From positions 1 to 39,828 of the forward strand of contig JAURPJ010000024.1 of assembly GCA_030835305.1 (NCBI GenBank): a DNA stretch of 39,828 nucleotides. Direction: 5' to 3'. The DNA is from Verrucomicrobiota bacterium. GTDB taxonomy: Bacteria > Verrucomicrobiota > Verrucomicrobiia > Verrucomicrobiales > Akkermansiaceae. Position 1 is the stretch's first letter; every line of letters starts with the position of its first letter. The notes under the pieces are model-generated. The model was given only the letters and a program-made list of their open reading frames with translations, did no database searches and was not told where the DNA came from. Of this stretch, positions 20,401-39,828 are shown piece after piece. Both the position numbers and the translations under genes were made by a program.

Positions 20401-23044
20401 CACTCTGCAGACAAACCGCCGCCTGATTCGCTACCGGATCTCGGCAGGCGACACCCCCGGTGCAAAAATCACAGTGCCCTACAAGGATGACCCCCAACCC
20501 AATTTCGCCTACTTCATTTACGATGGCACCCCCGACTGGAGCGGATCCGTCCGCGGCAGCGACGCTCCGGTGAACCACTCCGGTTCCCTGATGTCGAGCA
20601 TCGCGACCTACTTCCTGCTCAGCAAAAACTCGTATGTTGATGACTCCCAATTCGGAGGCTATCGCGGATCGAATTACCTCTGGCCCGGCACCATGGTTTA
20701 CGAGGGGAAGGTTTACGACCACATCAAATATCGCCCGCGTGGTGGCGTGCACCGCTTCCAGTATGGCAAAAATTTCTGGAAGTTTGACTTCGACCGTGGC
20801 CGCCGTTTTGAAGCACGGGATCGCTACGGTGAGAAATACTCCGAAGCGTGGGACAAACTCAATTTCTCATCCATCGTTCAACAAGTGAACTTCAACCACC
20901 GGGGCGAGCAGGGCTTGTTCGAGGGGGTTGGCTTCCGCCTCTTCCAGCTGAGTGGCGTCGAGGCCTGCCACACCCACTATGCCCAGTTCTATGTCATCGA
21001 CGAAGCCAGCCCCACCGGAGCCAACCAATATGAGAGCGACTACTACGGCCTCTTTCTCGCCATCGAACAACTGAACGGCCAGTTCCTCGACGAACATGAC
21101 CTGCCCGATGGCAACCTATACAAAATCGAGGGCCACCGTGGCGACTCCAACAACCAGGGACCCACCCAGGTCGACAACGGCAGGGATATTTCCAGCTTCA
21201 TCAACGCTTATCGTAACGGAACACCCACCGCCCACTGGTGGGAGAACAACCTCGATATCGAAAAGTATCTCAGCTACCGCACCATCGTCGAAGGAATCCA
21301 CCATTACGACATCGCCGCAGGCAAAAATTACTTCTACTACCACAACCCCGAAACCTCTAAGTTTGAAGTTCACCCCTGGGATCTTGATCTCACTTGGGCC
21401 AATAACATGTATGGCTCCGGCAACCATGATTTCAAAACAAAGGTCGCGCAGAACCCGGCCTTCAACACCCGCTTTCAAAATCGCGTCCGCGAAATCATGG
21501 ACCTACTCTACAACCCCGATGAAGGCCACAAACTCATCGATGAAATGGTTCGGGACGTCTGGACCCCGGGAGCACCATCGCTGGTCGGCGCCGACCGACG
21601 ACAGTGGGACAACAATCCCCGGATCAATCACCCCGATCGCTACTATGACGTCGCTTCCGGCAATGATTTCGGAGGTATGATTCAGATTCTCAAGAACTAC
21701 ATCGTCTCTCGCGGAAATTGGATGAAGTCGAATCTTCTCACCTCGGAAAACGTCATTCCCAAAACTCCCGTGATCACATATTCCGGTGCCCCCAGACACC
21801 CCGCCAACGGCCTGCAATTTACCTCAAGCAACTACAATTCAAACACGGCCTTCGCAGCCGTGGAGTGGCGAATCTCCGAAATCTACGACCCCACCACTTC
21901 CAACTATCTTGCCGAAGAACCTTACCTCTATGAGATTGAAGATCCCACCACCTCCGGTGAACTCACCTCATTTAATCCGGACTATCTCTTCCCCGCGGTT
22001 TCCGCGAGACCCGGTCAAACCTATCGCGCCCGTGTCCGCCACCGGGACTCTGAAGGACGCTGGAGCCACTGGTCCGCACCCGCCGAGTTTGTGGTCTCGA
22101 CTCCCGACGTCACGCCTCTCGCAAACGATCTCCGCATCACCGAAGTTCACTATCATCCCGCCCCGGCCAGCTCCACGGAACAAGCGATGGGCTGGACCGA
22201 TTCCGATTTCGAATACATCGAGATCCAGAACATCGGAGCGGCTGCCATTGACCTGACCGATGTCCGTTTCACCAAGGGAGTCGACTTTGACTTCCCGCCG
22301 GGAACCATGATTCAGCCAGGAGCCTTTCTCCTCATCGTAAAAAACCAGACGGCCTTCGATTCCCGATACGGAGTCGGCCTACCCGTGATTGGCGAATGGG
22401 ATCCCAATGACCAATTGAGCAACGGAGGAGAAAACATAAAACTCTCCCTCGGTGCCGGCACCGCCATCATCGAGTTCACCTATGATGACGATGCTTCCTG
22501 GCCGACTTCTCCCGACGGAGGAGGCCCCAGCCTAACTCTCATCCTTCCGACCGAAACCCAGCCCGCAGATCACTCGGACCCCTTGGCCTGGCAGGCCAGC
22601 CAACAGGCCGGAGGCACTCCTGGTGCGGCCGGACCCGGCACCTCGAACTTTGATTCGTGGGCACAGAGTCACGGCTTCGAAGCCGGCACCTCCATGACCG
22701 CCGATAATGACAAGGATGGTATAAATAACCTTCTCGAGTATGCCCTCGACTCCAATCCAACACTCGCTTCAAACCACGAACTTCCCACCGGAGCAACCGA
22801 ACTGATCGACGTTAACGGTGTGACTGATCGTTATCTAACCCTGACCTTCAGACGCAATCTAGCCGCCTCTGAACTCACCTTCAGCGTCGAGCTTTCGGGC
22901 GATCTTGTCTCCTGGGATAACAATACCGCCGTCCCGGTTTCTTCAACTGATAACGGCGACGGAACCGCTACCGAGATTTGGCGCGCCCCGCTTCCTTCGA
23001 CCACCAACTCCCGGCAGTTTGTCCGCCTCCGCGTGACCTACTGA
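17471..23044 (+). CDS. giant secreted protein: discoidin-like, three Fn3-like, two lamin-tail and a CotH kinase-like domain
   Basis: 1857 residues. A signal peptide (1-29) is followed by a discoidin/F5-8C-like domain (about 35-215) and three Fn3-like repeats (about 218-520), each ending LQP.TTY(F/Y)(F/Y)RA. Lamin-tail domain 1 (about 524-690) starts VVINEIHYDED. A beta-sandwich (about 696-855) follows, then the CotH domain (about 1020-1418) with RPRGGVHRFQYGKN and the metal-loop-like HPWDLDLTW near 1299. Lamin-tail domain 2 (about 1550-1720) starts LRITEVHYHP. The C-terminal module (about 1724-1857) contains SWAQSHGF, the calcium-type DNDKDGINNLLEYAL, and FVRLRVTY at the end. CotH proteins in spores phosphorylate coat proteins; the exported verrucomicrobial role is unknown, perhaps adhesion or surface modification. 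No frameshift was seen. Confidence 0.9.
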   Translation: MIMHLFLRSFSTATAALLLTLVGLKPISADVVIPNSIKAFHQGDSLTGNGAALQVINGSGMSKPDPNDPSTWTVNSTAWADDWQGFSTPSGNNTTWAVLDLGSPTPNLDQIYLWNVQENNARDRGTHRFNIFHATSPTITPPATSGTVTSYNFASGGWSKINGTFSLAQGTGNGDSGQSFDVSAAGGARYIGLQLVSNHGGFRVGFGEVAFTTKIPTGAPSVVTLTPTTVTFSSATIRGNLIDVGTSLPSLSLYWGPSDGGSNPAAWANNKNLGGQADPGEFSSSLNGLQPNTTYFYRAYGANAQGEDWASSSESFTTASAPPTVENLAASNIMGTSANIGAIVNSTGGEIPTLVIHYGDNNAGTGNWDSQLELGLQTSSDSGFISGLAPGTTYFFRAAATNSAGTSWAPSTATFSTTDVNPPTITNSPASRINGTFATLNGEVIDAGGDPPTVTIYYGTVDGESTPANWELSVPGGTQSSSFSRLVSNLQPTTTYYFRALAQNAAGSSWASTSRTFITPVFTPPSVVINEIHYDEDTKTVRAEFIELFNPSNNPIDLSGYYFSSGIDFEFPAGTILAAGGYLVVAEDPATLLSRFGYPGALGPFANGSSLRNSGERITLRNPAGTTVDEVDYQLGFPWPTVGDDIGTLLASPSIELINPLLDNDLGGSWRASGFPAATSNSGAGGDSPVNYIAGNATWKYLDDGSDQGTAWRNTEFDDSGWASGPAELGYGDSDEATLVNSGPAGGRYATTYFRASTDIPDPSDFVNFTISITYDDAYAIYVNGVEVARHAGLTNNAPYDEYANNTVGDNANDTVTVPTNAFVSGTNVIAVEIHQSSQNSSDISFALSLTGETSGGNPGGSFAPTPGAANRSYATTVPPQIRQVDHLPNQPMSGQPVVVTAKVTDPDGVDSVTLQYQLVNPGDYFSRYLKFNDNGTTNEDPRYEDPAEWTEVVMTDDGTGGDALAFDSIFTVTLPGTLQTNRRLIRYRISAGDTPGAKITVPYKDDPQPNFAYFIYDGTPDWSGSVRGSDAPVNHSGSLMSSIATYFLLSKNSYVDDSQFGGYRGSNYLWPGTMVYEGKVYDHIKYRPRGGVHRFQYGKNFWKFDFDRGRRFEARDRYGEKYSEAWDKLNFSSIVQQVNFNHRGEQGLFEGVGFRLFQLSGVEACHTHYAQFYVIDEASPTGANQYESDYYGLFLAIEQLNGQFLDEHDLPDGNLYKIEGHRGDSNNQGPTQVDNGRDISSFINAYRNGTPTAHWWENNLDIEKYLSYRTIVEGIHHYDIAAGKNYFYYHNPETSKFEVHPWDLDLTWANNMYGSGNHDFKTKVAQNPAFNTRFQNRVREIMDLLYNPDEGHKLIDEMVRDVWTPGAPSLVGADRRQWDNNPRINHPDRYYDVASGNDFGGMIQILKNYIVSRGNWMKSNLLTSENVIPKTPVITYSGAPRHPANGLQFTSSNYNSNTAFAAVEWRISEIYDPTTSNYLAEEPYLYEIEDPTTSGELTSFNPDYLFPAVSARPGQTYRARVRHRDSEGRWSHWSAPAEFVVSTPDVTPLANDLRITEVHYHPAPASSTEQAMGWTDSDFEYIEIQNIGAAAIDLTDVRFTKGVDFDFPPGTMIQPGAFLLIVKNQTAFDSRYGVGLPVIGEWDPNDQLSNGGENIKLSLGAGTAIIEFTYDDDASWPTSPDGGGPSLTLILPTETQPADHSDPLAWQASQQAGGTPGAAGPGTSNFDSWAQSHGFEAGTSMTADNDKDGINNLLEYALDSNPTLASNHELPTGATELIDVNGVTDRYLTLTFRRNLAASELTFSVELSGDLVSWDNNTAVPVSSTDNGDGTATEIWRAPLPSTTNSRQFVRLRVTY

Positions 23045-28425: not shown

Positions 28426-30180
28426 ATGCGACTATTCGTCACTACTCTTTTGGCATTTTATGCTCTTCCCGTCTCGTCCCAGGATCGTGGGAATCTTGAA
28501 TTCAAAAACGTTAAGACATTCACGATGTCTCCCCCCAATATCGTCCTCATCATGGCCGATGACCTCGGCTTCTCCGATCTCGGCTGCTACGGCTCCGAAA
28601 TCAATACTCCCAACATCGACGCGCTCGCCAAGGACGGCCTCCGCTTCACCCAGTTCTACAACACTGCCAAGTGCCATTCCTCCCGCGTCTCCCTTCTCAC
28701 CGGCCTCTACTGTGACCAAGCCGGCGGCGAATCCCTCTCGCGTGGAGCGACCATTGCCGAAGTCCTCAGACCTGCCAATTACCACACCATGATGGTCGGC
28801 AAATGGCACCTCTCAAAGCAACCGACCGACTTCGGATTCGACCGCTACTGGGGGCACCTTTCCGGAGCCACCAACTTCTTCACTGGAGACGACACCTTTC
28901 GCCTCGACGGAAAGCCCTGGAAAGTCCCCAACGCCCATAACGGAAAACCGTTCTACACCACCAACGTCATCACCGACTACGCCATCGATTTCCTGACTGA
29001 CCACTTCGTCAAAAATCTCGGAAGAATTTCAAAATCCCCGTCAGGTAGTAAAGGTCTTGAAACGAAAGGTGACTTCGACGGCGACGGAAAGAGGGCAAAA
29101 GTCGAAATGCCCAAGCCTTTTTTCCTTTACTGTGCCTACAACGCTCCACACTACCCGCTCCAAGCACCCAAAGCCGAGGTGCAAAAATACAAAGGCAAAT
29201 ACGCCGAAGGCTGGGACGTCCTTCGCAAACGCCGCCACGAAAAACAAATCAACACGGGCCTCCTTCCCGCCAAATGGCCGCTCTCACACCGCGCCGCTCA
29301 CATCCCGGCCTGGGACAGCCTCTCGCCTGAAGACAAACAATGGGAAGAAGACCGCATGGAAGTTTACGCAGCCATGGTCGATGTCCTTGACCAAAACATT
29401 GGCCGCCTCGTCGCACATCTAAAAGAAAAGGGCCTCTACGATAGCACCCTCATCATGTTCTGTTCCGACAACGGAGCCTGTCCCTTCGACCGCACCCGTG
29501 GCAAGAAACTCAAACCCTGGGACCCAAAGTCCTACTGGTGCTACGACGTCGGCTGGGCCTCGCTCGGCAACACTCCCTTCCGCCTCTACAAGCAAAACCA
29601 ACACGAAGGCGGCATCTCCTCCCCCATGATTGTGCGCGGCCCCAGGTCACTCCTCAAAACCAAGCCCGGCAGCATCACCCGACAACCCGCCCACCTCATC
29701 GACTTCATGGCCACCGCCCTCGAAGCGGGAAAAGCTTCTTATCCCGAAAAAATCGGAGGCCGGAGAATTGGGGTGAAATCCCCACGAGGTCAAGGGCAGG
29801 CCTTTATGAAAATGGTAGACCAGAGAACTGTCGACCCCCTCGCCGGAAAATCCCTCCTTCCCATTTTCGCTGGAGAGCAACGCCAACCCCACGACCCGCT
29901 CTACTTCCACTACCAAAAAGATCGCGCCCTCCGCTCGGGCGACTGGAAGATCGCCTCGGCAAAACTCGGCCGCTGGGAACTCTACGACCTCGCCGAAGAC
30001 CGCACTGAACTCAATGACCTCGCTGCCAAACATCCGGAGCGCGTCAGGGAAATGGTCGCCCAATGGCACGACATTGCCAAAGGCAAAGAGCGCCTTCCCA
30101 AAAACCAACTCAAGCCCGTCAAAAACACCCTAACTCCACAAAAATTCGGAGTCCGCTCAGATCCCGGAATCAAAAAGTAG
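28426..30180 (+). CDS. secreted sulfatase with CHSSR active-site variant
   Basis: 584 residues with a signal peptide (MRLFVTTLLAFYALPVSS), then PPNIVLIMADDLGFSDLGCYG (D45, D46 metal ligands). The formylglycine site reads CHSSR (C83-R87) in AKCHSSRVSLLTGLYCDQAG, with Ser where the classic CxPSR motif has Pro. Other blocks include VGKWHLS, FFLYCAYNAPHYPLQAP and MFCSDNGACPF. It resembles the arylsulfatase A-like branch (S1_4 type) of marine PVC bacteria, but the substrate is unknown. No maturase is nearby. It follows a terminator, so it has its own promoter, and it converges on purC with 33 bp between stops. Confidence 0.92.
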   Translation: MRLFVTTLLAFYALPVSSQDRGNLEFKNVKTFTMSPPNIVLIMADDLGFSDLGCYGSEINTPNIDALAKDGLRFTQFYNTAKCHSSRVSLLTGLYCDQAGGESLSRGATIAEVLRPANYHTMMVGKWHLSKQPTDFGFDRYWGHLSGATNFFTGDDTFRLDGKPWKVPNAHNGKPFYTTNVITDYAIDFLTDHFVKNLGRISKSPSGSKGLETKGDFDGDGKRAKVEMPKPFFLYCAYNAPHYPLQAPKAEVQKYKGKYAEGWDVLRKRRHEKQINTGLLPAKWPLSHRAAHIPAWDSLSPEDKQWEEDRMEVYAAMVDVLDQNIGRLVAHLKEKGLYDSTLIMFCSDNGACPFDRTRGKKLKPWDPKSYWCYDVGWASLGNTPFRLYKQNQHEGGISSPMIVRGPRSLLKTKPGSITRQPAHLIDFMATALEAGKASYPEKIGGRRIGVKSPRGQGQAFMKMVDQRTVDPLAGKSLLPIFAGEQRQPHDPLYFHYQKDRALRSGDWKIASAKLGRWELYDLAEDRTELNDLAAKHPERVREMVAQWHDIAKGKERLPKNQLKPVKNTLTPQKFGVRSDPGIKK

Positions 30181-30213
30181 CCTGCATTCCCAGCTCTCGG
30201 ACCACTGCACCAT

Positions 30214-31269
30214 TTAAGTCAACTCGTCCAAAATTAGATTCACGGACTCGACAATCCGCTGATCCCGCGGTCGGAGGTCAGGCGTGAAAGCTTCACCGGT
30301 GATATGCTGAAGGCCCTCAATGTAGCGAACCGCGATCTCATTGGCTTGCTCTTCAGAAAACTGCTGATCGTTTTTATCCTTCACCATTCCCCGGGCGAAC
30401 TCCTTTGAAAAGGACACCGGCTTGCCATCGCGGGTTACCAATTCACCGTCATCATCCAGCCTCCAAAAGCGCGAAGAATCCATGGTGTAAAGTTCATCGG
30501 CTGCCACGATCATACCTTCCGAATTGATCCCATGCTCGGTTTTGGTATCGACCAAGACCATTCCCCGCTCAGACAAATACTGCGAAACGATCCCGAAAGC
30601 CATAAGCGAGGAATTACGAATCGCGGCATATTGCGCGGCAGAGCAAACACCCGCATTCACGAGATAGTCAGCATCGACCGTGCGGTCTACTTTATCTTTG
30701 GTGCTGGGGGTATCCATCAAGTAGGGAAGGCGACCGTTGGGTTGCAGTCTGCCTACCTCCAACTCATGCCCGGCATACTGCATAATTTCGGTTCCAGCCT
30801 CTTTGGCGGCGAGCCAGTGTTGGTAAAGCGAAGTCGAGGTCGAACTCTCCGCCATATAGAAACGGACAACATTTTCCAACATCACCAAAGTCAGATTCTC
30901 CGCGGGGATCACCGTCGAACTGGGAGCCAGACCCTCCACTTCAAACTGCGAACTTCCCACCACGTCCCTCACCAACCGTAACATGTGATCATGGTTCATT
31001 GAGAGAATCTGATCCTTGAATGGAATCGCTCCCCGGTTCACGTCGTGAGTAGAGATCCGGTTGTTCCGGAACATCAGCCGAATCGGCTTGCCGTTGCGAT
31101 GGGCGAGAGTCTCTCCGAAAACAGAATCGGAAACCTTGCCCTTCAGAACAATGCAACTTTTCAAACGCGGAACGTCTCCGTCCTCGATTAGCTGCTTGAT
31201 TGAGCGGCCCTCATTCACTGCCGGTCCGTACTCTGCAACCAACTCCCGGATTTCATGATTCTCTAACAT
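30214..31269 (-). CDS. purC: phosphoribosylaminoimidazole-succinocarboxamide (SAICAR) synthase
   Basis: 351 residues, on the long side for PurC. Blocks of the family: RLMFRNNRISTHDVNRGAIP, ENVVRFYMAESSTSTSLYQH and LVDTKTEHGINSEGMIVAAD, then DELYTMDSSRFW. The enzyme joins CAIR and aspartate using ATP in purine synthesis. ATG 31269 gives a normal N-terminus. No other pur genes are nearby. Its upstream 170 bp lead into a PHM-like gene fragment. Confidence 0.94.
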   Translation of the reverse strand: MLENHEIRELVAEYGPAVNEGRSIKQLIEDGDVPRLKSCIVLKGKVSDSVFGETLAHRNGKPIRLMFRNNRISTHDVNRGAIPFKDQILSMNHDHMLRLVRDVVGSSQFEVEGLAPSSTVIPAENLTLVMLENVVRFYMAESSTSTSLYQHWLAAKEAGTEIMQYAGHELEVGRLQPNGRLPYLMDTPSTKDKVDRTVDADYLVNAGVCSAAQYAAIRNSSLMAFGIVSQYLSERGMVLVDTKTEHGINSEGMIVAADELYTMDSSRFWRLDDDGELVTRDGKPVSFSKEFARGMVKDKNDQQFSEEQANEIAVRYIEGLQHITGEAFTPDLRPRDQRIVESVNLILDELT

Positions 31270-31443
31270 TCGCTTGAAAAGATTACTTCTGATTGCTCAA
31301 CGCCGGAAGAGTAGTCAATTCGCCGGGAACTACAAGGCAGGGGCGCTCCCAAATCACACCGAGTATTTTGGGGAAGGCAAACTCACCATCTGCATTTCAA
31401 CCACGCCGGAGCAAAGTAAATCACGCTGTCGCCAGCAAGGCGA

Positions 31444-31900
31444 TCAATCTTCGATGTATCCAAGCGTCGCAAAGAACATCTCGTCGAAACTCTGTTCGCC
31501 CCACCGAATCTCCTTCTTCGGGTTCGGGTTGTAAGGATTATTGGCAGAGTTATCCCAGGCATTCCGGATGTGTACTTGGGTTTCTTTGGGCAGTTTGCGT
31601 GGCTCCTTGAAGACGTAGGTTCGCTGCCAGTTGAAGTTATAGTTTGGGACCGAGAGCAACATCTCGCGACGCCCATCCGAATATACCGCTTCAAATTCCA
31701 TGAATTTCCCGCGAAAATGCATATGCGGATTGATCGCGTAAAGAGTCACACTCTTCTTGATCGACAGTATCTTTTTCGCAGTGAACTCAGGCGCACCCGC
31801 CGGAATCCTAAAGTCTCTCTCCAAAACCACTGCGGTTTTGAAGATCTTCTCCGTAGGTTTGTCTGAGATATGAAGCCCGAGCTTTGTGTCAGTTGCGCGA
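31444..31900 (-). pseudogene. C-terminal fragment of a PHM-like (copper type II monooxygenase-like) protein gene
   Basis: About 150 codons read TKLGLHISDKPTEKIFKTAV, then LYAINPHMHFRGKFMEFEAV with the PHM-type HMH motif, then YNFNWQRTYVF and QSFDEMFFATLGYIED-stop. This is the C-terminal part of PHM/DBM-like domains that in Planctomycetes/Verrucomicrobia end long redoxin-cytochrome proteins. The frame stays open leftward from 32004, inside speD, but resemblance starts only near 31890 and no signal peptide or upstream domain exists. It sits between the speD stop (31958) and purC, and is probably untranslated. Confidence 0.7.
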
Positions 31901-31957
31901 TCCACCGGGCAAGTGAGTATGGGCCACTGTATTCGCCGACAAATCAAAAAACGAGCT

Positions 31958-32335
31958 TCATTTGGGCCCTGGAGGCCTCCGCTCAAAGACCTTCCGGAAG
32001 ACATTGGTCGGCTGAAAAACCTCCCTCAACCTGCGAGCGATTTTATCGGCAAGATCACGCTTTCCGCAGGTATAAATATCAAAGGAGGCATATCCAATAT
32101 CCGGCCAGGTATGGATCGCCAGATGGCTCTCGGAAATCACCACCACCCCACTCAGCCCGGCTGGATTGTATGAATGGATCATACTATCCACGACCGTGGC
32201 TCCGGCCTTACGGGCACAGTCGATCATCGTATCCTCCAGCAAATCTGCATCCGTCAAAAGGTCCCGCCGACAGCCCGAACACTCCATTGCGATATGAACC
32301 CCGTAGGGGCTATGCTGACCGTGCTCCTCAAGCAT
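31958..32335 (-). CDS. speD: S-adenosylmethionine decarboxylase proenzyme
   Basis: 125 residues from ATG 32335, chosen because MLEEHGQHSPYGVHIAMECS is the normal start; an open frame reaches further up into the K+ channel gene. The self-cleavage site ISESHLAIHTWP is intact: E69 / S70 (pyruvoyl precursor) / H71, with H75 and C90 (YTCG) also kept. The enzyme makes decarboxylated AdoMet, the aminopropyl donor. It is the last gene of the six-gene operon, starting 8 bp inside the 3' end of the K+ channel gene. Its partner aminopropyltransferase is the first gene, so the pathway pair brackets the operon. Confidence 0.95.
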   Translation of the reverse strand: MLEEHGQHSPYGVHIAMECSGCRRDLLTDADLLEDTMIDCARKAGATVVDSMIHSYNPAGLSGVVVISESHLAIHTWPDIGYASFDIYTCGKRDLADKIARRLREVFQPTNVFRKVFERRPPGPK

Positions 32336-33398
32336 TGATTTGCTCCATAAACTCATCACACTCGGCTGAACTGCGGGCAATGATAACGAGTTCGTCATCG
32401 TCAGTCAGGACTGTCTCCTTGGGTGGATTCAAATCCGCATCAGCCCCTCTTTTGATCCCGACAATCTGAACCTGATGAGGGCTTTCGAGAGCTTGAATCT
32501 GCAATCCACTCAGCGGATGCCCCGTCGACCGATGCTTTCTTAAGTAGAGCTCACAACCCGTCCGGTAACTCAGAAGCTGGCCGACCACTTCGCCAATACC
32601 CGGCTGGTTCAAGTCCTGCGTCATGACGCGATCAGGAAGACCATCACCCCATATATAACGCAGGCCCGCCTTTCGGAAAAGCTCGACCGAAGAGGCGTTC
32701 TCGATCATCGAAAGCACCCGTGAAACCTGTGTCGGAAAGAGGTTCTTGAGAAAAGATGCCGTCGCATAGACCTCGGTATCATTTGAATCTTGCGAATCCG
32801 GCAAGACGATCACGCCTTGGCTTTCCCCGACATTGGCTTTTTCGGCCACTCCCTCTTCTCGTAGTGAGCCTCTCACGAAAGACACACCCAGCTCCTTCAA
32901 GCTCTGTGGCAATTCCCCAAGCCGGTCGCTCACGATCAACAATCCCGCCCCGTCACCCAGCGACATACGGAGTTCAATGAAGATTTTCTCGACCCGATCG
33001 ACCGACGGGCATCCTGAAATAATGACATGATTGTTCATAGTGAGTTTATGTAAGCCTTTCTTTTTACGACTGAAGTGATCGACCACGGCTTCCGACACCG
33101 TGCCGAGTAGGATACCAATGAGACTGATTCCGAGAAGGAAACACGGGTAGGCGATCAGAAAACGGCCACACCATGTCTGCGGGTAGTAGTCACCATAGCC
33201 GACCGTCGTCATCGTCACCATGGCCCACCAGATGGAATCCCAAATCCCAAGGCCTTCCTGGGTTCCCCGCTCTGCAAAATAAAAGGCGATTCCGAAAACC
33301 AAATTCAACGCAATAGCCGCAAGAACGGCGGTCAGAAACCGCTGAACCGGATGCCCCTCAAACTTGAAGAGCCTGATGAATCGCCGGAATAACCACAT
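32328..33398 (-). CDS. 2-TM potassium channel with RCK (TrkA-N) and TrkA-C-like domains
   Basis: 356 residues. Two membrane segments (about 20-42 and 80-105) flank a pore with the K+ selectivity filter TTVGYGD (64-70). The cytoplasmic RCK domain begins NNHVIISGCPSVDRVEKIF, with a GxxxxD-like fold start that departs from the standard GxGxxG (GCPSVD), so NAD(H) binding is doubtful. SRVLSMIENASSVELFRKAG and a TrkA-C-like end (VLTDDDELVIIARS) complete it. MthK- or GsuK-type K+ conductance is expected. It is 5 bp after the unknown protein and overlaps speD by 8 bp, so it is clearly part of the polyamine module. Confidence 0.92.
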   Translation of the reverse strand: MWLFRRFIRLFKFEGHPVQRFLTAVLAAIALNLVFGIAFYFAERGTQEGLGIWDSIWWAMVTMTTVGYGDYYPQTWCGRFLIAYPCFLLGISLIGILLGTVSEAVVDHFSRKKKGLHKLTMNNHVIISGCPSVDRVEKIFIELRMSLGDGAGLLIVSDRLGELPQSLKELGVSFVRGSLREEGVAEKANVGESQGVIVLPDSQDSNDTEVYATASFLKNLFPTQVSRVLSMIENASSVELFRKAGLRYIWGDGLPDRVMTQDLNQPGIGEVVGQLLSYRTGCELYLRKHRSTGHPLSGLQIQALESPHQVQIVGIKRGADADLNPPKETVLTDDDELVIIARSSAECDEFMEQINA

Positions 33399-33403
33399 GA
33401 ACT

Positions 33404-34159
33404 TTAGCTGATCTCAAGGCTCCATCGGGTTTTCCAAAACGGTTGTATGCTGTCATCCGGCTGCCAATCCGGAGCCGATCGTGACGGAGCCCACCTCGCA
33501 AGATGGCCCATCACTTCCGGAAACCACTCACTCAATTCCCGCACCAACAAAAATCCCTGCTCGATCACCTCCACAATCACATCTTCCCCGCTCACCTCAT
33601 CGTATCCGAGGTCGTCAATGGTCAGGCTTTGGCGACAGATTTCCTCGATCTCATTCCAGATCAAACCCTCCAGAAGAGAAACTTCCCATCCGCCTTCCAC
33701 AAAGCTGAATCGTCCTTCCTGCATGAAGTGGGCAAAGACCAATTCCACCGGATCCGCACCCAGATGGAGACCGACGGGAACCCTTAGATCCTCCCAACGA
33801 TCATCGGCCAAAAACCGTCCCCAGGCAGCCTCGGTTTCAAAATCACTGTGGTGGGCCAACGCAAATTCCCCCGAACCCAAATCAACCGCCGAAAAGACAT
33901 CAAAGTATCGCAGCACCCGCATGTAGCGTTTCCGAAACGCGGTTGACGTCGCATGACCCAGCGTCGATACCCGGTAAAAATTCTTCTCGGAAATCTCGAC
34001 GAGATTGCGCGTCAGCAGCCAGGCTAAAATGGAATCGAGGTGGGTCTGGGAACCCGGCAAAAGCACATCATACTCGATGCTGTTTGAAGCCATGTGGCCC
34101 AACAACACCGTCCCGTTAAAGAGACACCGCCGCTCCGGACTGATCGTAAAATCCCCCAT
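33404..34159 (-). CDS. 251-aa soluble protein of the DUF350/polyamine module, function unknown
   Basis: No signal peptide or membrane segment. The N-terminal third (HLDSILAWLLTRNLVEISEK, then FYRVSTLG) could be a winged-helix-like unit, but that is a guess from pattern. The C-terminal half is acidic (LIWNEIEEICRQSLTIDDLG, SGEDVIVEVIEQG). No family recognised; it does not look like YjfK (DUF2491), the protein found at the matching place in enterobacterial DUF350 clusters. Its ATG overlaps the DUF350 stop by one base (TAATG) and it ends 5 bp before the channel gene, so it is translated as part of the operon, probably as a cytoplasmic partner. Confidence 0.85.
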   Translation of the reverse strand: MGDFTISPERRCLFNGTVLLGHMASNSIEYDVLLPGSQTHLDSILAWLLTRNLVEISEKNFYRVSTLGHATSTAFRKRYMRVLRYFDVFSAVDLGSGEFALAHHSDFETEAAWGRFLADDRWEDLRVPVGLHLGADPVELVFAHFMQEGRFSFVEGGWEVSLLEGLIWNEIEEICRQSLTIDDLGYDEVSGEDVIVEVIEQGFLLVRELSEWFPEVMGHLARWAPSRSAPDWQPDDSIQPFWKTRWSLEIS

Positions 34160-35031
34160 TAAATACTCGCAATCACGATGAAGGCTACAATCAGGGATAC
34201 CACCGCTTCAAGCAAGCCAAGCCCCCAGTTGCGGTCCTTCTGTAACTCGGCCGAAAGCGAAACCTTGCCGGAAAAAATCAAGTGCACCACGAGCCGGAAA
34301 AGCCCCAGAACAATGACGTAGCCAAATGCCAGAAAGACCACGGTCGGAAGGGCATCATACCGCATTTTGGCATTTCCAAGCAACAATGCGAAAGCGAGGA
34401 GCGACCCGCCAAAGGCCAGGCCCACGGCCGGATTGTCTTTCTCCAATTCGCCATGCAAATCAAGCCCCGCAGCTTTGGGATAAACCTTGGAATATAGAAG
34501 GAATAAGACCTGCCCGACCACAAAGTAAATTAGAGTCAGCCAAGGCTCGCCGAGATCGACCGGCTCAATCTGCTCGCTGAGAGATGCCCGAATCAGAATC
34601 GCCGTTCCCAGAAAACTCGCCGCCTCAACGACTGCGAGTCCCGCATTGCGATCTTCCAAAATCTCTTTGCGGTTTTTGAAGTTGGGGAAGATGACGAAAT
34701 CATTTACCAAGAGCGTTCCAACTAGGAGAACAAGCGAACCCGCGGTCCAGATAATCGAGCTCACTAGCTCTTGGCCCCAGGTAAAATCATCCGGCGAGGG
34801 AGACTGTATTACCGAAGCTATCACCACTCCCAGCGCCGCTATAAACCCGCCGTAAGAAATGGCAAAGGCGGGGTTGTCCTTCTCGGCCAGCTGCTGGGAA
34901 AGGCTCACCTTGCGGAGAACGACGTAAGCCTGGCTGCCAATCCAGAGAAAGACAATCGCCTTAACAAGATAGATCCAAATGGTCCACTCGGAGAATTCAC
35001 CGGGAAACTGGAAATCAAAAAGAGTTTTCAT
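34159..35031 (-). CDS. tandem DUF350 (YjfL-like) membrane protein
   Basis: 290 residues from ATG 35031 (MKTLFDFQFPGEFSEW); the frame runs on upstream into the lipoprotein gene but that part is Pro/Val-rich and overlaps it. About eight membrane segments form two DUF350-like halves (about 20-150 and 160-290). Family-like repeats recur: SQQLAEKDNPAFAISYGGF and, in the second half, HGELEKDNPAVGLAFGGS, and EDRNAGLAVVEA versus KDRNWGLGLLEA. Single DUF350 proteins have about 130 residues, so this is a duplicated form. The function is unknown; the family recurs in envelope-stress neighbourhoods with polyamine enzymes or PspA. Confidence 0.88.
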   Translation of the reverse strand: MKTLFDFQFPGEFSEWTIWIYLVKAIVFLWIGSQAYVVLRKVSLSQQLAEKDNPAFAISYGGFIAALGVVIASVIQSPSPDDFTWGQELVSSIIWTAGSLVLLVGTLLVNDFVIFPNFKNRKEILEDRNAGLAVVEAASFLGTAILIRASLSEQIEPVDLGEPWLTLIYFVVGQVLFLLYSKVYPKAAGLDLHGELEKDNPAVGLAFGGSLLAFALLLGNAKMRYDALPTVVFLAFGYVIVLGLFRLVVHLIFSGKVSLSAELQKDRNWGLGLLEAVVSLIVAFIVIASI

Positions 35032-35053
35032 AATCGTGGTCGAAGTGATGGGG

Positions 35054-35893
35054 CTATTTACCCCCGCCAAAGGAACTTCCGGAACGGGAGGAACTGCGGA
35101 AACTTCCGGAGCTGGAAGAACTGCTACGGGAGCCAAACCCTCCACTGCGGATGGCCTTGGAAGGATTACGGGCCTGAAAGGATTTTTGGCTGGCGGTCGG
35201 ATTCCGAAGCGGTGCCTTAATCTTACTCGAGGTCCGCGACTTATTTGGGGAAGCGCCGGATCCTTTGAAGACCGGGGTTTTCGAGGTGGTTACACTCGCG
35301 GTGTTAATCCTGCCCACTCTGGAGCGGTAACTATCACGATCAAGCGGAGCGGAACGACTGTAGCTCGGGGGATAGTTTCCATAGCCCCACCCTGAACGGT
35401 ACGGTTGGTGGGACGAAAAAAGATAACTCATCATGAGGAAGTCGCCAACTCCGAAACCGCGATGGTAATAGTGATTATTTCCGTAGATTTGGCTGTTCCC
35501 GTGCGTCTGCGCCCGGTGACCGCCATTGCCATCTTCGGTGATCTCGATCGTCGCCAGTTCCTGCACATCATCGGGACCAAGCTCGGTCGTGAGCGAAAAC
35601 CCCCGCACCTCCCCGGAGGAATATTCGGACACCTTGACATAGTCGATCGTATTGTCCTCGTTCAAGTCGAGGTTACAAATCCGTGGGTCCCCCGAGTTGA
35701 TTCTCTTCTCCAGATCTTCGGCATTCTTGACCTCCTTCAGCAAAGCGGTCACCGCCTTGAGGTCCAGGCCATCGGCCGCTTCCGAAGTCACGGTCATATT
35801 AACGTTCTGGTTCACGTCATCTCCGCACGAGACCAGCAACGGGCTCAGCGCTGTCGCGAAGATGAGACTTAAATTAAGGGGGAGTGATTTCAT
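35054..35893 (-). CDS. lipoprotein with Gly/Ser-rich tail, polyamine module
   Basis: 279 residues. The signal peptide ends in the lipobox LLVSC (lipidated Cys about 22). A compact domain (about 25-120) contains DLNEDNTIDYVKVSEY, similar in pattern to a short calcium loop. A Tyr/His/Gly-rich stretch (GNNHYYHRGFGVGDF) follows, and the last ~100 residues are low-complexity, basic and Ser/Gly-rich, ending SGSSFGGGK. In firmicute DUF350/SpeD clusters a lipoprotein with a similar tail (DUF4247) occupies this slot; I did not recognise that domain itself, so the parallel is positional. It starts 15 bp after the aminopropyltransferase stop. Confidence 0.82.
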   Translation of the reverse strand: MKSLPLNLSLIFATALSPLLVSCGDDVNQNVNMTVTSEAADGLDLKAVTALLKEVKNAEDLEKRINSGDPRICNLDLNEDNTIDYVKVSEYSSGEVRGFSLTTELGPDDVQELATIEITEDGNGGHRAQTHGNSQIYGNNHYYHRGFGVGDFLMMSYLFSSHQPYRSGWGYGNYPPSYSRSAPLDRDSYRSRVGRINTASVTTSKTPVFKGSGASPNKSRTSSKIKAPLRNPTASQKSFQARNPSKAIRSGGFGSRSSSSSSGSFRSSSRSGSSFGGGK

Positions 35894-35908
35894 CGCTTAT
35901 GAAAAATT

Positions 35909-37582
35909 TTAGGGGGATTCCTTCCAGGCCCGCAAGTAGTGACGGAAAATGGCCGGATCGTCCAGAGTGGTTATATCCTCTGATGAGGATTTCAAGAAAC
36001 CAGGGGCAAAAACAAGAGCCGCTCCGAGGGTTTCACCATTGAGATAACGGGTCGGAATCTCGAAGCCGGTGAGACGACCCAGCTTTTGAGCCAATTCCTC
36101 CGGAGTCGTTTGATCCGAAGACGTACTCACCCACCAACCCCAGTCACCAAAAGAGGGAATGTTTGCGTGAAGAGGAACGGTCGCAAATCCGGCCGCTTCC
36201 ATCGTCCGCCCAATGCAAAGGAAAGCCTCCCGCGCGTGCCAAGGCGAGGTCGATTGCTGGATAATCAAACCTCCTTCCTTCAACAACCCGCGCAATTGCC
36301 CGTAAAAGGCAAGACCGTAAAGTTTCGCCAACCCGGGGGAGGAAGGATCCGGAAAGTCGAGAATAACCACGTCGAATCGCCCCTCCGCTTCCGCCACATA
36401 GCGCGAAGCATCCTGATGCACGATTTCCACCTCGGGAAGCTCGACCGAATCCCCGAGAAAACGTTCCGAGCGATCAGGCATCAGCGTCGATTTCGTCTCG
36501 CCGGTTCCGCTCGCCGGAACGATTCGTAACTGAACCCTGGCATCCGAAAACGCCCCCTCATTCATCCGTACCATATCCTCGTGACTTGCCGACATCTTCG
36601 TCATGAAGGGATCCAGATCCACCAAGGTGACTTCCTTCACCGCCGGATATTTCAGCACTTCCCGCAGGGCCAGGCCGTCACCTCCGCCCAGAATCAAAAC
36701 CCTTTCTCGACTCTTGCTCAGCGCCATCGCCGGATGAGTCAAAAGCTCATGGTAAATGTATTCGTCGTTCTGCGAGAACTGCAAATGCCCGTTGATGTAG
36801 CAGCGCAAATTCCCCTTCTCTGACTTGGTGAGAACGATCCGCTGGTAGGGGGAAGTCGCGGTGTAAACGACCTGATCCCGGTAGAGCGATTGCTCCGCAT
36901 CCAGCGCCCATTCCTTGCACTTGGTGAAGCCCACCACACACCCCGCCAAAGCCACTGGAATAAGAATAATCCAGACCCGGCCAAACCGCGATTGCCGGCG
37001 AAAAATCACCACGCAAATCAGAGCTCCGCTTAGTGTGATCAAGGCCAAAATCAGCGCCGTTTCGGTGATCGAAAATTTTGGGATCAAAAGAAAGGTCCAA
37101 AACAGTCCGCCCAACAAAGCCCCGGCATAATCCATTCTCAAAACCTTGCCTATGTTTTTCCGCATCGCCGGCATGAACGACTCGTTGAGCCGCGTGATGA
37201 GCGGAATCTCAAGACCAATCAAGAGTCCACAAAAAGAGATCAGGCCGTAGTGGACCAAGGAAAAATTCAGCGGATAAAACGCGAAGGTTTGAATGAAAAA
37301 AAGCGGCCCGAAGCCACCCAGCAGCGCGAGCACAATCTGCGAACCCGCCAACATATCGACCAGCCAACGATCGGGTAATCGTTGCTGGATCTCCGCACCC
37401 AACCCCATGAAGAACAGCATCACGGCGATGACCAACGCCCACTGTTGCACCGAGTTCCCGAGGAGGTCGGACGACACCTTGCTCAAAGTATATTCATAGG
37501 CGATCCCGCACCCTCCCATCACAAAGATGGCGAGTCCAAGGATCCACCCCTTCAGCGCATCGCTCCCCTCTTTCACGGACAC
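35909..37582 (-). CDS. membrane-anchored polyamine aminopropyltransferase (spermidine synthase-like)
   Basis: 557 residues. The N-terminal half has about seven membrane segments (about 12-230), beginning AIFVMGGCGIAYEYTLSKV, as in the long membrane-bound branch of the family. The C-terminal half is the catalytic domain: SPYQRIVLTKSE, HLQFSQNDEYIYHELLTHPA, the AdoMet-type loop LILGGGDGLALREV (near 296-309), DLDPFMT, and the catalytic DFPDPSSPGLAKLY. The expected reaction is transfer of aminopropyl from decarboxylated AdoMet to putrescine or another amine. First gene of the operon whose last gene is speD. The membrane domain places the reaction at the cytoplasmic membrane. Confidence 0.93.
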   Translation of the reverse strand: MSVKEGSDALKGWILGLAIFVMGGCGIAYEYTLSKVSSDLLGNSVQQWALVIAVMLFFMGLGAEIQQRLPDRWLVDMLAGSQIVLALLGGFGPLFFIQTFAFYPLNFSLVHYGLISFCGLLIGLEIPLITRLNESFMPAMRKNIGKVLRMDYAGALLGGLFWTFLLIPKFSITETALILALITLSGALICVVIFRRQSRFGRVWIILIPVALAGCVVGFTKCKEWALDAEQSLYRDQVVYTATSPYQRIVLTKSEKGNLRCYINGHLQFSQNDEYIYHELLTHPAMALSKSRERVLILGGGDGLALREVLKYPAVKEVTLVDLDPFMTKMSASHEDMVRMNEGAFSDARVQLRIVPASGTGETKSTLMPDRSERFLGDSVELPEVEIVHQDASRYVAEAEGRFDVVILDFPDPSSPGLAKLYGLAFYGQLRGLLKEGGLIIQQSTSPWHAREAFLCIGRTMEAAGFATVPLHANIPSFGDWGWWVSTSSDQTTPEELAQKLGRLTGFEIPTRYLNGETLGAALVFAPGFLKSSSEDITTLDDPAIFRHYLRAWKESP

Positions 37583-37698
37583 AGCCTAGCCATGAAATGC
37601 CCAAGCTCAATCCGTTCTCCATGGAATCGAGTGTTAATTATCCAAAAAACTCCCTTTTCATCTTCAATTCATCTTCAATCTGCAACCATCCCTCCGTG

Positions 37699-38844
37699 AT
37701 GAAAAAACTTCTCCCTCTCATTCTTCCCTCACTCATGGTTTTGAGCAGTTCACTCTATGGACAACGCCAGCCCCCTCCGGGCCCGCCCCCCGGGGGAGGA
37801 AGACCACCACGCGGCGAGCGCCCGCACCGCCGGATTGAGCAGCAGCCTGAAGCGAACGAACAGGAACAGCGAAGACGACCCCGAGGACAACGAGGAGGTG
37901 GCCCGCGCCCTGAAAATCTCACCGAGTCAGATGCCGACCTCGGAACCGCCGGCATCGCCTGGTATCCGATTTTGGAAGATGGATTGGCCGAAGCCAGGCG
38001 CACCAACAAGCCCATCCTCTTCATGGCCGTCGCTTCCCAATGCGGCGGCATCCCGGGTGTCTTTTGACCCGGCTACACCGCCACGCAGAACCGTGAGTTC
38101 AGCAATCCAAAAGTCATCGAAGCCACCCGCGATTTTGTCTGCATCCGCATCGACTCCTATGAGAGCGAAGAGGCTCAAAAAATCGTTCGCGGTTACCTCA
38201 ACGGTCGCTTTGAAAACACCGCCTTTTGCCTCCTTTCGCCGGACGGAAAAAAGAAGCTTTCGCGGAGCAGCCGCGGGCCCAACCAGGTTCTCGGAGGCGA
38301 CCTTGTGAGAGCCTTTGGAGAAATCGCCGACGACTACAAAAGGAAAGGCAAAGCCGAAAAAGCAGCAGTCCCTGATTTCCCTAACTTCCGCCTCGGTCTC
38401 AATGTTTCCTCCGCCGACCAGCGGATCATAGTCCTAATCACAGGCACCGAAAAGGAACTTAATGCCGCCCGCAACTCCCTTCCCTCAACAAGCAACGATC
38501 CTGAGATCATTGGTAAATTTCACTATGACTTTGAAACCGATCCCCATACCTGGACCGGGATTCTCACAGGCGACCGATCAAAATCAGGCATCAAAATCAT
38601 CGTCCCGGACACTTACGGGCAGAAAGGAAAGATCGTGAAGTCGCTTCCCCTCGACACCAACGCGAATGACCTCAAAACAGCGCTCCTGAAAGCGAATAAA
38701 ACTTTTGCGGAAACCACCCCGAAAAAGAACTACCAAAGCCACGTTCAACAAGGACGTCGCCAGGGCATCAACTGGACCATGCCCATGAAATTTGGCGAGG
38801 ATCGCGATGGCGACGGCAAGATCGATCACCGCGGAGGACGCTAA
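37699..38844 (+). CDS. secreted thioredoxin-like-fold protein with an in-frame TGA (selenocysteine, readthrough or nonsense)
   Basis: One frame of 382 codons from ATG 37699 to TAA, interrupted only by TGA at 38065-38067. A signal peptide is followed by a Pro/Arg-rich linker (GPPPGGGRPPRGERPHRR and onward), then a thioredoxin-like domain starting IAWYPILEDGLAEARRTNKP with QCGGIPGVF before the TGA and PGYTATQNREFSNPKVIEAT after it. The frame is intact for another 258 codons, ending with the calcium-type DRDGDGKIDHRGGR. No CxxC is visible; the TGA falls in the active-site region of the domain. A short hairpin (CACG/CGTG, 38082-38095) lies after the TGA. In this decay-rich region a plain nonsense change is the simplest view. 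Confidence 0.7.
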
Positions 38845-38876
38845 GGCACCTGCCCCTCTCAAATCAAAATCAATTC

Positions 38877-38909
38877 AGCGGCCGGAACGATAGGTTCCGG
38901 TCGCTTTTC
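38877..38909. terminator. bidirectional Rho-independent terminator between convergent genes
   Basis: GCGGCCGGAAC (38878-38888) pairs with GTTCCGGTCGC (38894-38904), 11 bp with one G-T pair and a 5-nt loop, followed by TTTT. It sits between the thioredoxin-like gene and the MFS gene; the A/T-poor left side makes it better for the plus strand. Confidence 0.85.
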
Positions 38910-38919
38910 ATTCCCTCGG

Positions 38920-39828
38920 TCACTTGGTGATTTTCTTGGGAAACCGCAGAATTTTAGCAATGATGAGAAAGACCAGGAATGCTGCCAAAAATGCCCACGG
39001 CTGCCATTCCAGAGTCCACGTGAGAGCTTCATCATCAGTCTTTCCAAATTCACGTCTCTGGAAGGAAACCGTGCCGGCAAACACCAAACTTGCCGTTCCA
39101 TAACCAATATTAAAAAGAAGCCCCTTCACGCTGAGCACGGTCGCCCGCTGGCTCGAATCTGCGAGACCATTCAGATAACGACTCATCAAAAATCCCAGAT
39201 GAGACATTCCCACCATCACTCCGATCCCCGGGAGCACCCCCCAGTAAGTCCAGGCCTGACCCAGCAAGTAGAGACAGAGCAGGGACCACCCCGCCGTCAT
39301 TACAAAATTGGTGAGAGGCGCGTACATGCTCACCAAGTAACGCGAGAGGCGCGGAGTATAGATTCCAAGCAGCGCCGCACCGGCCGCAATTAATCCAAAG
39401 GTATAAGTTGGAATCTCAATCAAACGATAATACTCGCTGTTGATCGTTGCGAAGTTCCGCACCACTCCGTCAATGAGAAGTCCTCCGATTACGATCAAAA
39501 TCGCCGCCTTCGTCGTGAAGACCCATTTGGCAGCTCTCCACGTCTGCCACAGAATCGCCGTAAACCCTGCCGCTTGGTCTCCCTCTTTGACCTCACGGAA
39601 TTGGAGTGAAACGATAAAAGCGGCCACTGCCTGCACCAGGCAAAAGACAATGGGAAGACGATGTGCGATCTCCACATCAAGCCCAACCGCTCCCGCATCA
39701 TAAACCAAGGCACCCACCACCATCGCCACCACCATGGCGCTCGATCGAAGTTTGAAGGTGGTCTCCAGCACTTCATCCCAATCCTCCTCCTTCTCCAGGC
39801 TGTCAAATGCCAGAGCTTCATCCGCACC
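38920..39828 (-). CDS. MFS-type membrane transporter (5' end cut by window)
   Basis: The frame enters from the right edge and runs about 302 residues to the stop at 38920. It holds roughly eight hydrophobic segments (for example AMVVAMVVGALVYDAGAVGL, LIVIGGLLIDGVV, YTFGLIAAGAALLGIYTPRL), with a cytoplasmic loop carrying the acidic EEDWDEVLETTFKLR near the window edge. This order fits the C-terminal two thirds of a major facilitator protein. The substrate cannot be inferred. The apparent internal start near 39771 is a GTG within the loop and is not a true start. Confidence 0.8.
   Translation of the reverse strand, partial: GADEALAFDSLEKEEDWDEVLETTFKLRSSAMVVAMVVGALVYDAGAVGLDVEIAHRLPIVFCLVQAVAAFIVSLQFREVKEGDQAAGFTAILWQTWRAAKWVFTTKAAILIVIGGLLIDGVVRNFATINSEYYRLIEIPTYTFGLIAAGAALLGIYTPRLSRYLVSMYAPLTNFVMTAGWSLLCLYLLGQAWTYWGVLPGIGVMVGMSHLGFLMSRYLNGLADSSQRATVLSVKGLLFNIGYGTASLVFAGTVSFQRREFGKTDDEALTWTLEWQPWAFLAAFLVFLIIAKILRFPKKITK

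What the first reader, a model, noticed from the sequence alone, without database searches (positions are those of the whole stretch)
31958..37582. Six-gene polyamine / DUF350 / K+ channel membrane operon
Aminopropyltransferase with a membrane half, a lipoprotein, a duplicated DUF350 protein, an unknown soluble protein, an RCK K+ channel and SpeD are packed with gaps of 22 bp or less and three overlaps. The two polyamine enzymes bracket the membrane parts. Polyamines are known pore blockers of K+ channels, so one testable idea is that the enzymes make, at the membrane, a polyamine or modified amine that gates this channel or stabilises the envelope. Parts of such clusters are known near PspA/YjfK; this channel-plus-lipoprotein version with a tandem DUF350 and no PspA seems distinct.
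Basis: partly seen in the sequence, partly recalled or inferred. Interest (0 to 1): 0.68.

Follow-up and report, generated by a model that had tools for sequence, protein, structure and literature searches.

The report
Membrane polyamine and potassium channel operon
Six adjacent bacterial genes, combining polyamine-type enzymes, membrane proteins and a potassium channel, are kept together in several genera and look like a slimmed-down version of a larger membrane-stress gene cluster.

Summary
On the minus strand of window 31958-37582 lie a membrane-fused SpeE, a lipoprotein, a tandem DUF350, an unknown 251-aa protein (U251), an MthK-like RCK K+ channel and SpeD, tightly packed. A U251 profile rang in 7 of 384 genomes of the class; with Pelagicoccus and a Lentisphaeria genome that makes nine. 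Their neighbourhoods show two main forms. Three genomes carry nine genes: SpeE-Lipo-DUF350x2-U251-Kch-CesT-PspA-SpeD-AAA. Five genomes of four genera, the window included, carry the form without CesT, PspA and AAA (one is cut by a contig end). The PspA-less loci lie on one side of a 100/100 branch; no CesT and no standard PspA was found in the two of these five genomes tested. So "no PspA" is best read as one old loss from a PspA-type operon. The families and most linkages were already in print (PMC11237479). New here: the SpeE+channel+U251 arrangement, the U251 family, and the persistent PspA-less lineage. The genome has a separate carboxyspermidine-type gene trio, so SpeD/SpeE probably serve another acceptor. 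Gating of the channel by the product is untested.

The parts
35909..37582 (-). SpeE-type aminopropyltransferase domain fused to an N-terminal multi-TM half (557 aa); motifs DEYIYHE, GGGDG, DFPDP, PSFGDW
   Evidence: NF002956 539.7 bits; alignments to spermidine synthases
35054..35893 (-). Lipoprotein (279 aa), lipobox-like LLVSC, Asp76/80/84 in a DxDxDG-like loop, Ser/Gly-rich tail ending GGK
   Evidence: no Pfam family; AF2 model poor, mean pLDDT 44.9
34159..35031 (-). Tandem (two-repeat) DUF350 membrane protein, ATG at 35031 (290 aa)
   Evidence: (two PF03994 stretches)
33404..34159 (-). U251, soluble protein of an undescribed family; N-terminal third predicted winged-helix-like at modest confidence
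   Evidence: no family; HTH_45 E 0.055 in 1 of 8 members; weak fold matches; 7 of 384 genomes
32328..33398 (-). MthK-like 2TM K+ channel with RCK domain, filter TVGYGD (356 aa)
   Evidence: (MthK 8djb, E 9e-16)
31958..32335 (-). SpeD, class 1b type S-adenosylmethionine decarboxylase (125 aa from ATG at 32335, overlapping the channel gene by 8 bases)
   Evidence: TIGR03330 112.7 bits; PDB 1vr7, 1tlu; only PF02675 match in the genome

Best explanation
A six-gene envelope-homeostasis module that descends, by loss of CesT, PspA and an AAA ATPase, from a nine-gene PspA-type operon. SpeD makes decarboxylated AdoMet. The membrane-fused SpeE transfers its aminopropyl group to an acceptor that is probably not putrescine (a membrane-associated amine, lipid or protein; inferred). 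The tandem DUF350 and the lipoprotein form the membrane and periplasmic part. U251 is a cytosolic adaptor or winged-helix regulator (weak evidence). The RCK channel is the ion-flux output, gated by an intracellular ligand that is unknown and need not be the aminopropylated product. Shown: gene identity, packing, conserved order, one-sided distribution of the PspA-less form, conserved donor-side motifs. Inferred: acceptor, physiological role, channel ligand, single transcript.
For: Nine-gene versions in L072 (Pelagicoccus), L100 (same order) and L101 (same family); PspA-less versions in window, L071 (= L104), L102, L103 and, cut by a contig end in DUF350, L099. CesT-PspA-SpeD-AAA also stands as a block in L035, L063 and L078, so SpeD without the dyad in the window points to loss. 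Concatenated tree: the five PspA-less loci (two of them near-copies) and the five others are split by a 100/100 branch. No CesT in G000 or the L071 genome, one in L072's; PspA only as a divergent sub-cut-off protein in G000 and the L071 genome, two over the cut-off in L072's. One SpeD in the genome, besides a separate carboxy(nor)spermidine synthase / NspC / agmatinase trio. D[FL]PDP and P[ST]FGxW in 23 of 23 membrane SpeE rows (with L072 and L101 mended; window, L071 and L104 are near-copies), where B. subtilis spermidine synthase has DSTEP and PTYPSG, while YHE and GGGDG are kept. dN/dS 0.03-0.34 between window and L071 for five of six genes.
Against: No expression or biochemical data. SpeD dN/dS between window and L071 is 0.895 (2 synonymous, 6 non-synonymous changes), so relaxed constraint on SpeD is not excluded. 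The carboxynorspermidine synthase hit is below its curated cut-off (395.8 against 800 bits), and no arginine or ornithine decarboxylase of the PF02784 kind was found, so the alternative spermidine route is likely, not proven. The tree is unrooted; the direction (loss) rests on L035 and Lentisphaeria as outgroups. PspA and CesT were not searched in the genomes of L099, L102 and L103. Promoter-like sites were no more than in shuffles.
Confidence: 0.6

Rival explanations
1. One reading: SpeD and SpeE make a polyamine-like product at the membrane that blocks or gates this K+ channel.
For: In 8 of 9 U251 genomes the channel lies directly after U251. An E or D stands near the inner pore mouth in 9 of 9 aligned channels (SEAV in the window; by eye; its position at the mouth is inferred). 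Polyamine block of inward rectifiers is established (search listing only).
Against: The channel is in only 2 of 12 intact SpeE loci sampled in the phylum (plus a 30-bit fragment in L032) and is absent beside U251 in Lentisphaeria L063; SpeE-DUF350-SpeD loci persist without it. Among solved structures it is closest to MthK, and no Kir channel is in the 60 rows shown. No block was tested.
Confidence: 0.15
2. Ordinary spermidine biosynthesis (SpeD+SpeE) with unrelated membrane genes alongside.
For: SpeD matches the AdoMet decarboxylase model over its cut-off and solved AdoMetDC structures; the SpeE domain keeps GGGDG and YHE; NCBIfam calls the fused protein polyamine aminopropyltransferase.
Against: DUF350 beside SpeE in 11 of 12 intact loci, the twelfth cut at a contig end; changed acceptor-side motifs; a separate carboxyspermidine-type trio. 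Li et al. 2019 reported that such fusions do not complement E. coli speE (recalled; paper not held).
Confidence: 0.15
3. The six-gene cluster is a decaying remnant of the PspA operon without its own function.
For: CesT, PspA and AAA are missing; SpeD dN/dS 0.895 on eight changes.
Against: The six frames are open in window, L071, L102 and L103, and the visible four in L099, although L102, L103 and L099 are only 32-61% identical to the window; dN/dS 0.03-0.34 for the other five genes.
Confidence: 0.08

Closest known systems
CesT/Tir-PspA operons with 7TM-fused spermidine synthase, 8TM DUF350, Ctha_1186 lipoprotein and DUF4178 (second group of Ravi et al. 2024, PMC11237479; section 19 and passages read)
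   Same: Membrane-fused SpeE, tandem DUF350, a lipoprotein; nine-gene relatives carry CesT and PspA
   Different: Window lacks CesT, PspA and DUF4178; adds RCK channel, SpeD and U251
CesT/Tir-PspA operons with ATP-grasp ligase, K+ channel, 4TM DUF350, DUF1190 and DUF2491, and their dyad-less variants (third group, same section)
   Same: K+ channel, DUF350; SpeD occurs with this group; dyad-less variants are already described there
   Different: SpeE fusion instead of the ATP-grasp ligase; tandem DUF350; no DUF1190 or DUF2491 match
SpeD / MFS-SpeE fusion / DUF350 clusters (Li et al. 2019, BCJ20190561; not held, content recalled; cited in PMC11237479)
   Same: SpeD, fused SpeE and DUF350 together; a role other than spermidine proposed
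   Different: I do not recall channel, lipoprotein and U251 in this arrangement from it; not checked

Membership tests
Ravi second-group PspA operon | SpeE domain fused to an N-terminal 7TM half | tested here: met
   NF002956 539.7 bits over 472; TM half by crude hydropathy, 6 segments in the L071 copy; exact TM number not settled
Ravi second-group PspA operon | 8TM (tandem) DUF350 | tested here: met
   two PF03994 stretches; 8 hydrophobic segments in the L071 copy
Ravi second-group PspA operon | CesT/Tir-PspA dyad | tested here: not met
   absent from the operon; no CesT and only a divergent PspA in the genome
Ravi second-group PspA operon | DUF4178 protein | tested here: not met
Ravi second-group PspA operon | Lipoprotein with Ctha_1186 domain | tested here: inconclusive
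   lipoprotein present; no model of that domain was at hand, and Pfam gave no match for the window protein
Ravi third-group operon | K+ channel with intracellular ligand-sensing domain | tested here: met
Ravi third-group operon | ATP-grasp glutathionylspermidine-synthetase-like ligase | tested here: not met
   not among the ten operon and neighbour proteins scanned; rest of the genome not searched
MthK-type RCK K+ channel | TVGYGD filter, 2TM pore, RCK domain | tested here: met
   (TrkA_N 22.0 bits is just under its cut-off 23.8; TrkA_C is over)
MthK-type RCK K+ channel | Ca2+ gating | not tested
   ligand site not modelled
Class 1b AdoMet decarboxylase | Self-processing serine and His/Cys context (ESH, HTWP, TCG; roles recalled) | tested here: met
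   kept in 10 of 10 aligned rows
Canonical spermidine synthase | Makes spermidine from putrescine | not testable with these tools
   acceptor-side motifs differ from 1iy9

The most novel reading that the evidence does not exclude
A self-sufficient envelope module in which a membrane-bound aminopropyltransferase modifies a new acceptor (lipid, protein or amine) and a ligand-gated K+ channel acts as output, kept for a long time after loss of PspA, with U251 as a new cytosolic regulator linking the two.
Probability: 0.3. Interest if true: 0.75.

Novelty: new variant of a known kind. Interest (0 to 1): 0.5.

Why it matters
The same operon with and without PspA, in the same bacterial family, separates what the polyamine/DUF350/channel part does from what PspA does. 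That makes the open questions of the aminopropyl acceptor and of DUF350's role directly testable in a minimal six-gene system and in a relative with the nine-gene form, Pelagicoccus (strain name suggests an isolate; not checked).

Tried and rejected
U251 in viral contigs: one pattern match, no relative. U251 in plasmids: none. Channel in plasmids: one weak hit (29.3%, 64% of query), not followed. SpeE in plasmids: 14 records, 4 of them fetched. PDB sequence searches with U251 and lipoprotein profiles: nothing better than E 0.023. AF2 of U251: mean pLDDT 56.5, only about residues 1-80 usable; Foldseek had no match at E<=0.001 (best 0.035, a DNA helicase; LmrR prob 0.99 but E 0.19). AF2 of the lipoprotein: 44.9, not searched. 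Promoter- and terminator-like sites: no more than the shuffles give within one s.d. (2 against 3.5; 10 against 9.5). Rfam: no match in 29000-39828. The channel profile rang in 59 of 288 genomes at 1e-12, but only two full-length relatives, both rows of the profile itself; the next best was 86 bits. Considered and rejected: assembly artefact (five assemblies agree, one in part); a second SpeE-like gene at G000:C79 as the true spermidine synthase (TIGR00417 32.3 bits against cut-off 249.55; GGLGFG in place of GGGDG).

Counts: of the 13 SpeE genomes, G269 holds only fragments with stops and was left out, giving 12. L071, L104, G533 and G387 are taken as one genome (contig length 180255; the 5750-base operon stretch of L071 is found letter for letter in L104). 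L063 and L073 are the same Lentisphaeria locus. In one search the DUF350 query was out of frame, so its lack of hits is not used. In one search the group label of L074 was wrong (its DUF350 is tandem-sized) and that row is a long branch, so the label counts of that call are not used. In one search the third motif shown for L072 and L101 was a false early match; one search shows DFPDP in both.
Full report
What is there. Six genes run on the minus strand from 37582 to 31958: a membrane-fused SpeE, a lipoprotein, a tandem DUF350, U251, an RCK K+ channel and SpeD. Pfam and NCBIfam between them name four; the lipoprotein and U251 match no family. Junctions with the likeliest starts are +15, +22, -1, +5 and -8 bases (one search takes an earlier DUF350 start). 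The nearest flanks are a SAICAR-synthetase-domain gene and, by eye, a sulfatase-like gene; the flanks of the relatives look different (by eye).

How far it is conserved. DUF350 occurs in 28 of 288 genomes of the phylum, 21 over the curated cut-off. The fused SpeE occurs in 13 of 387; one of these (G269) is only fragments. The other 12 loci were all fetched: 11 have DUF350 beside SpeE and the twelfth (L079) is cut by a contig end; 8 have SpeD in the stretch, 3 have PspA in the stretch, and 2 (window and L035) have the channel, with a weak 30-bit fragment in L032. So SpeE-DUF350 is the core, SpeD is frequent, and PspA and the channel are optional. Of 14 plasmid records with the fused SpeE I fetched four; Alteromonas and Novosphingobium show the core with DUF4178 and SpeD, so the core crosses phyla.

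The informative marker is U251. A single-sequence search found it in 2 of 288 genomes. A pattern scan of the named genome collection gave 60 candidate stretches and 3 confirmed relatives: L071 (Verrucomicrobiia Co_bin.176), L072 (Pelagicoccus sp. SDUM812002) and L073 (Lentisphaeria); the patterns were strict, so this is a lower bound. A four-row profile found it in 7 of 384 genomes of the class. Counting each genome once, there are nine: window, L071, L099, L102, L103, L100, L101, L072 and Lentisphaeria.

Two main forms of one operon. L072, L100 and L101 carry SpeE-Lipo-DUF350x2-U251-Kch-CesT-PspA-SpeD-AAA (CesT and PspA confirmed by Pfam for L072; L101 has wider spacing around SpeD, with a 132-aa ORF between PspA and SpeD). 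Window, L071, L102 and L103 carry SpeE-Lipo-DUF350x2-U251-Kch-SpeD. L099 shows DUF350-U251-Kch-SpeD up to its contig end, with no AAA after SpeD. The Lentisphaeria genome splits it: SpeE-Lipo-DUF350 at 1.69 Mb and U251-CesT-PspA-SpeD-AAA at 1.00 Mb, without the channel. L035 and L078 hold CesT-PspA-SpeD-AAA with other partners in place of U251 and Lipo; L035 has the channel, L078 does not.

Loss of PspA. In a tree of six concatenated proteins (LG+F+G4; L099 lacks SpeE and Lipo, L035 lacks U251 and Lipo, Lentisphaeria lacks the channel) the five PspA-less loci, two of them near-copies, are split from the five PspA-bearing ones by a branch of 100/100. The SpeE tree puts window and L071 with L072 and L034 at 100/99 (run before L100-L103 were found). 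Since the CesT-PspA-SpeD-AAA block also stands outside the U251 group (L035, L078), one loss is the simplest reading; the tree itself is unrooted. In G000 and the L071 genome no CesT was found (0 of 2; 1 of 1 in the L072 genome), and only a divergent PspA below the curated cut-off, in G000 next to another AAA protein. PspA and CesT were not searched in the genomes of L099, L102 and L103; only their loci were read.

Still under selection? Between window and L071, dN/dS is 0.106 (SpeE), 0.139 (lipoprotein), 0.109 (DUF350), 0.344 (U251), 0.030 (channel) and 0.895 (SpeD; 2 synonymous and 6 non-synonymous changes). Five genes look constrained; SpeD cannot be judged from eight changes, though ESH, HTWP and TCG are kept in 10 of 10 rows aligned.

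What the enzymes may do. SpeD is the only PF02675 match in the genome. The genome also encodes adjacent homologues of carboxynorspermidine synthase (395.8 bits, below cut-off 800), NspC (494.7, above cut-off 409.05) and agmatinase (237.5, above cut-off 174.3) at G000:C124. Spermidine is therefore probably made there. No PF02784-type arginine or ornithine decarboxylase was found besides LysA and NspC, so the putrescine source is open. The fused SpeE proteins keep YHE and GGGDG but show D[FL]PDP and P[ST]FGxW in 23 of 23 rows, where B. subtilis spermidine synthase (1iy9; species recalled) has DSTEP and PTYPSG. That these positions line the acceptor side is recalled knowledge. Together this fits aminopropyl transfer to another acceptor, as suggested before (PMC11237479 passages, citing Li et al. 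2019, which I could not read).

The channel. Among solved structures it is closest to MthK (E 9e-16). The filter is invariant in the nine rows aligned. In the nine U251 genomes the channel is next to U251 in eight. I have no evidence for or against polyamine block; the gating idea remains a hypothesis.

U251 and the lipoprotein. U251 has 36 invariant positions over 8 members. Its N-terminal part folds as a winged-helix-like unit in a low-confidence model, with weak PadR/DtxR-like matches and a weak HTH_45 hit in 1 of 8 members. The lipoprotein keeps Asp at positions 76, 80 and 84 in a DxDxDG-like loop, suggesting, not showing, calcium binding. The lipobox cysteine is missing in L034.

Literature. 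I searched on DUF350, polyamine and PspA, DUF350 alone (35 papers listed), a six-term mix, the Li et al. title phrase with other terms, polyamine block of bacterial channels and YjfL/YjfK/YjfJ/YjfC/spermidine. I opened four papers: PMC11237479 (section 19 and passages), which describes such operons; PMC10948618 (passages), experimental work on a CesT-type/PspA cluster in Pseudomonas; PMC10407285 (passages); PMC11107197 (passages and section 10). In what I read, SpeE fusion, channel and SpeD together without PspA was not described; supplementary tables and figures were not seen, so it may be listed there.

Verdict. A genuine, conserved variant, not described in what I read, of known PspA/polyamine/DUF350 operons; moderately interesting, because the PspA-less lineage offers a clean test of what this module does on its own.

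Noticed in passing
window 31444-32004: Downstream of SpeD the window has only the last 147 residues of a Cu2_monoox_C-like protein that is a 589-aa gene in L071 (12363-14132); an apparent truncation right after the operon.
   Followed up: partly
L069:7309-9893 (G000:C91): Divergent PspA-like protein (31.6 bits, below cut-off 33.9) beside a 551-aa AAA ATPase; the operon's CesT, PspA and AAA profiles gave no hit there at 1e-4.
   Followed up: partly
L032:5679-6005 (G121): Short channel-like protein (108 aa) with TTIGYGN instead of TVGYGD near an SpeE-DUF350-DUF4178-PspA-CesT cluster; possibly degenerate.
   Followed up: no
L074:6944-13602: Alteromonas mediterranea plasmid cluster SpeE, SpeD, hypothetical, 'toxic anion resistance protein', DUF4178, hypothetical, DUF350.
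   Followed up: no
L077:2583-10374: Novosphingobium plasmid cluster SPFH, two DUF4178, hypothetical, DUF350, SpeE, FAD oxidoreductase, SpeD, rhodanese-related.
   Followed up: no
window 17471-23044: ORF of 1857 aa on the plus strand, not examined.
   Followed up: no
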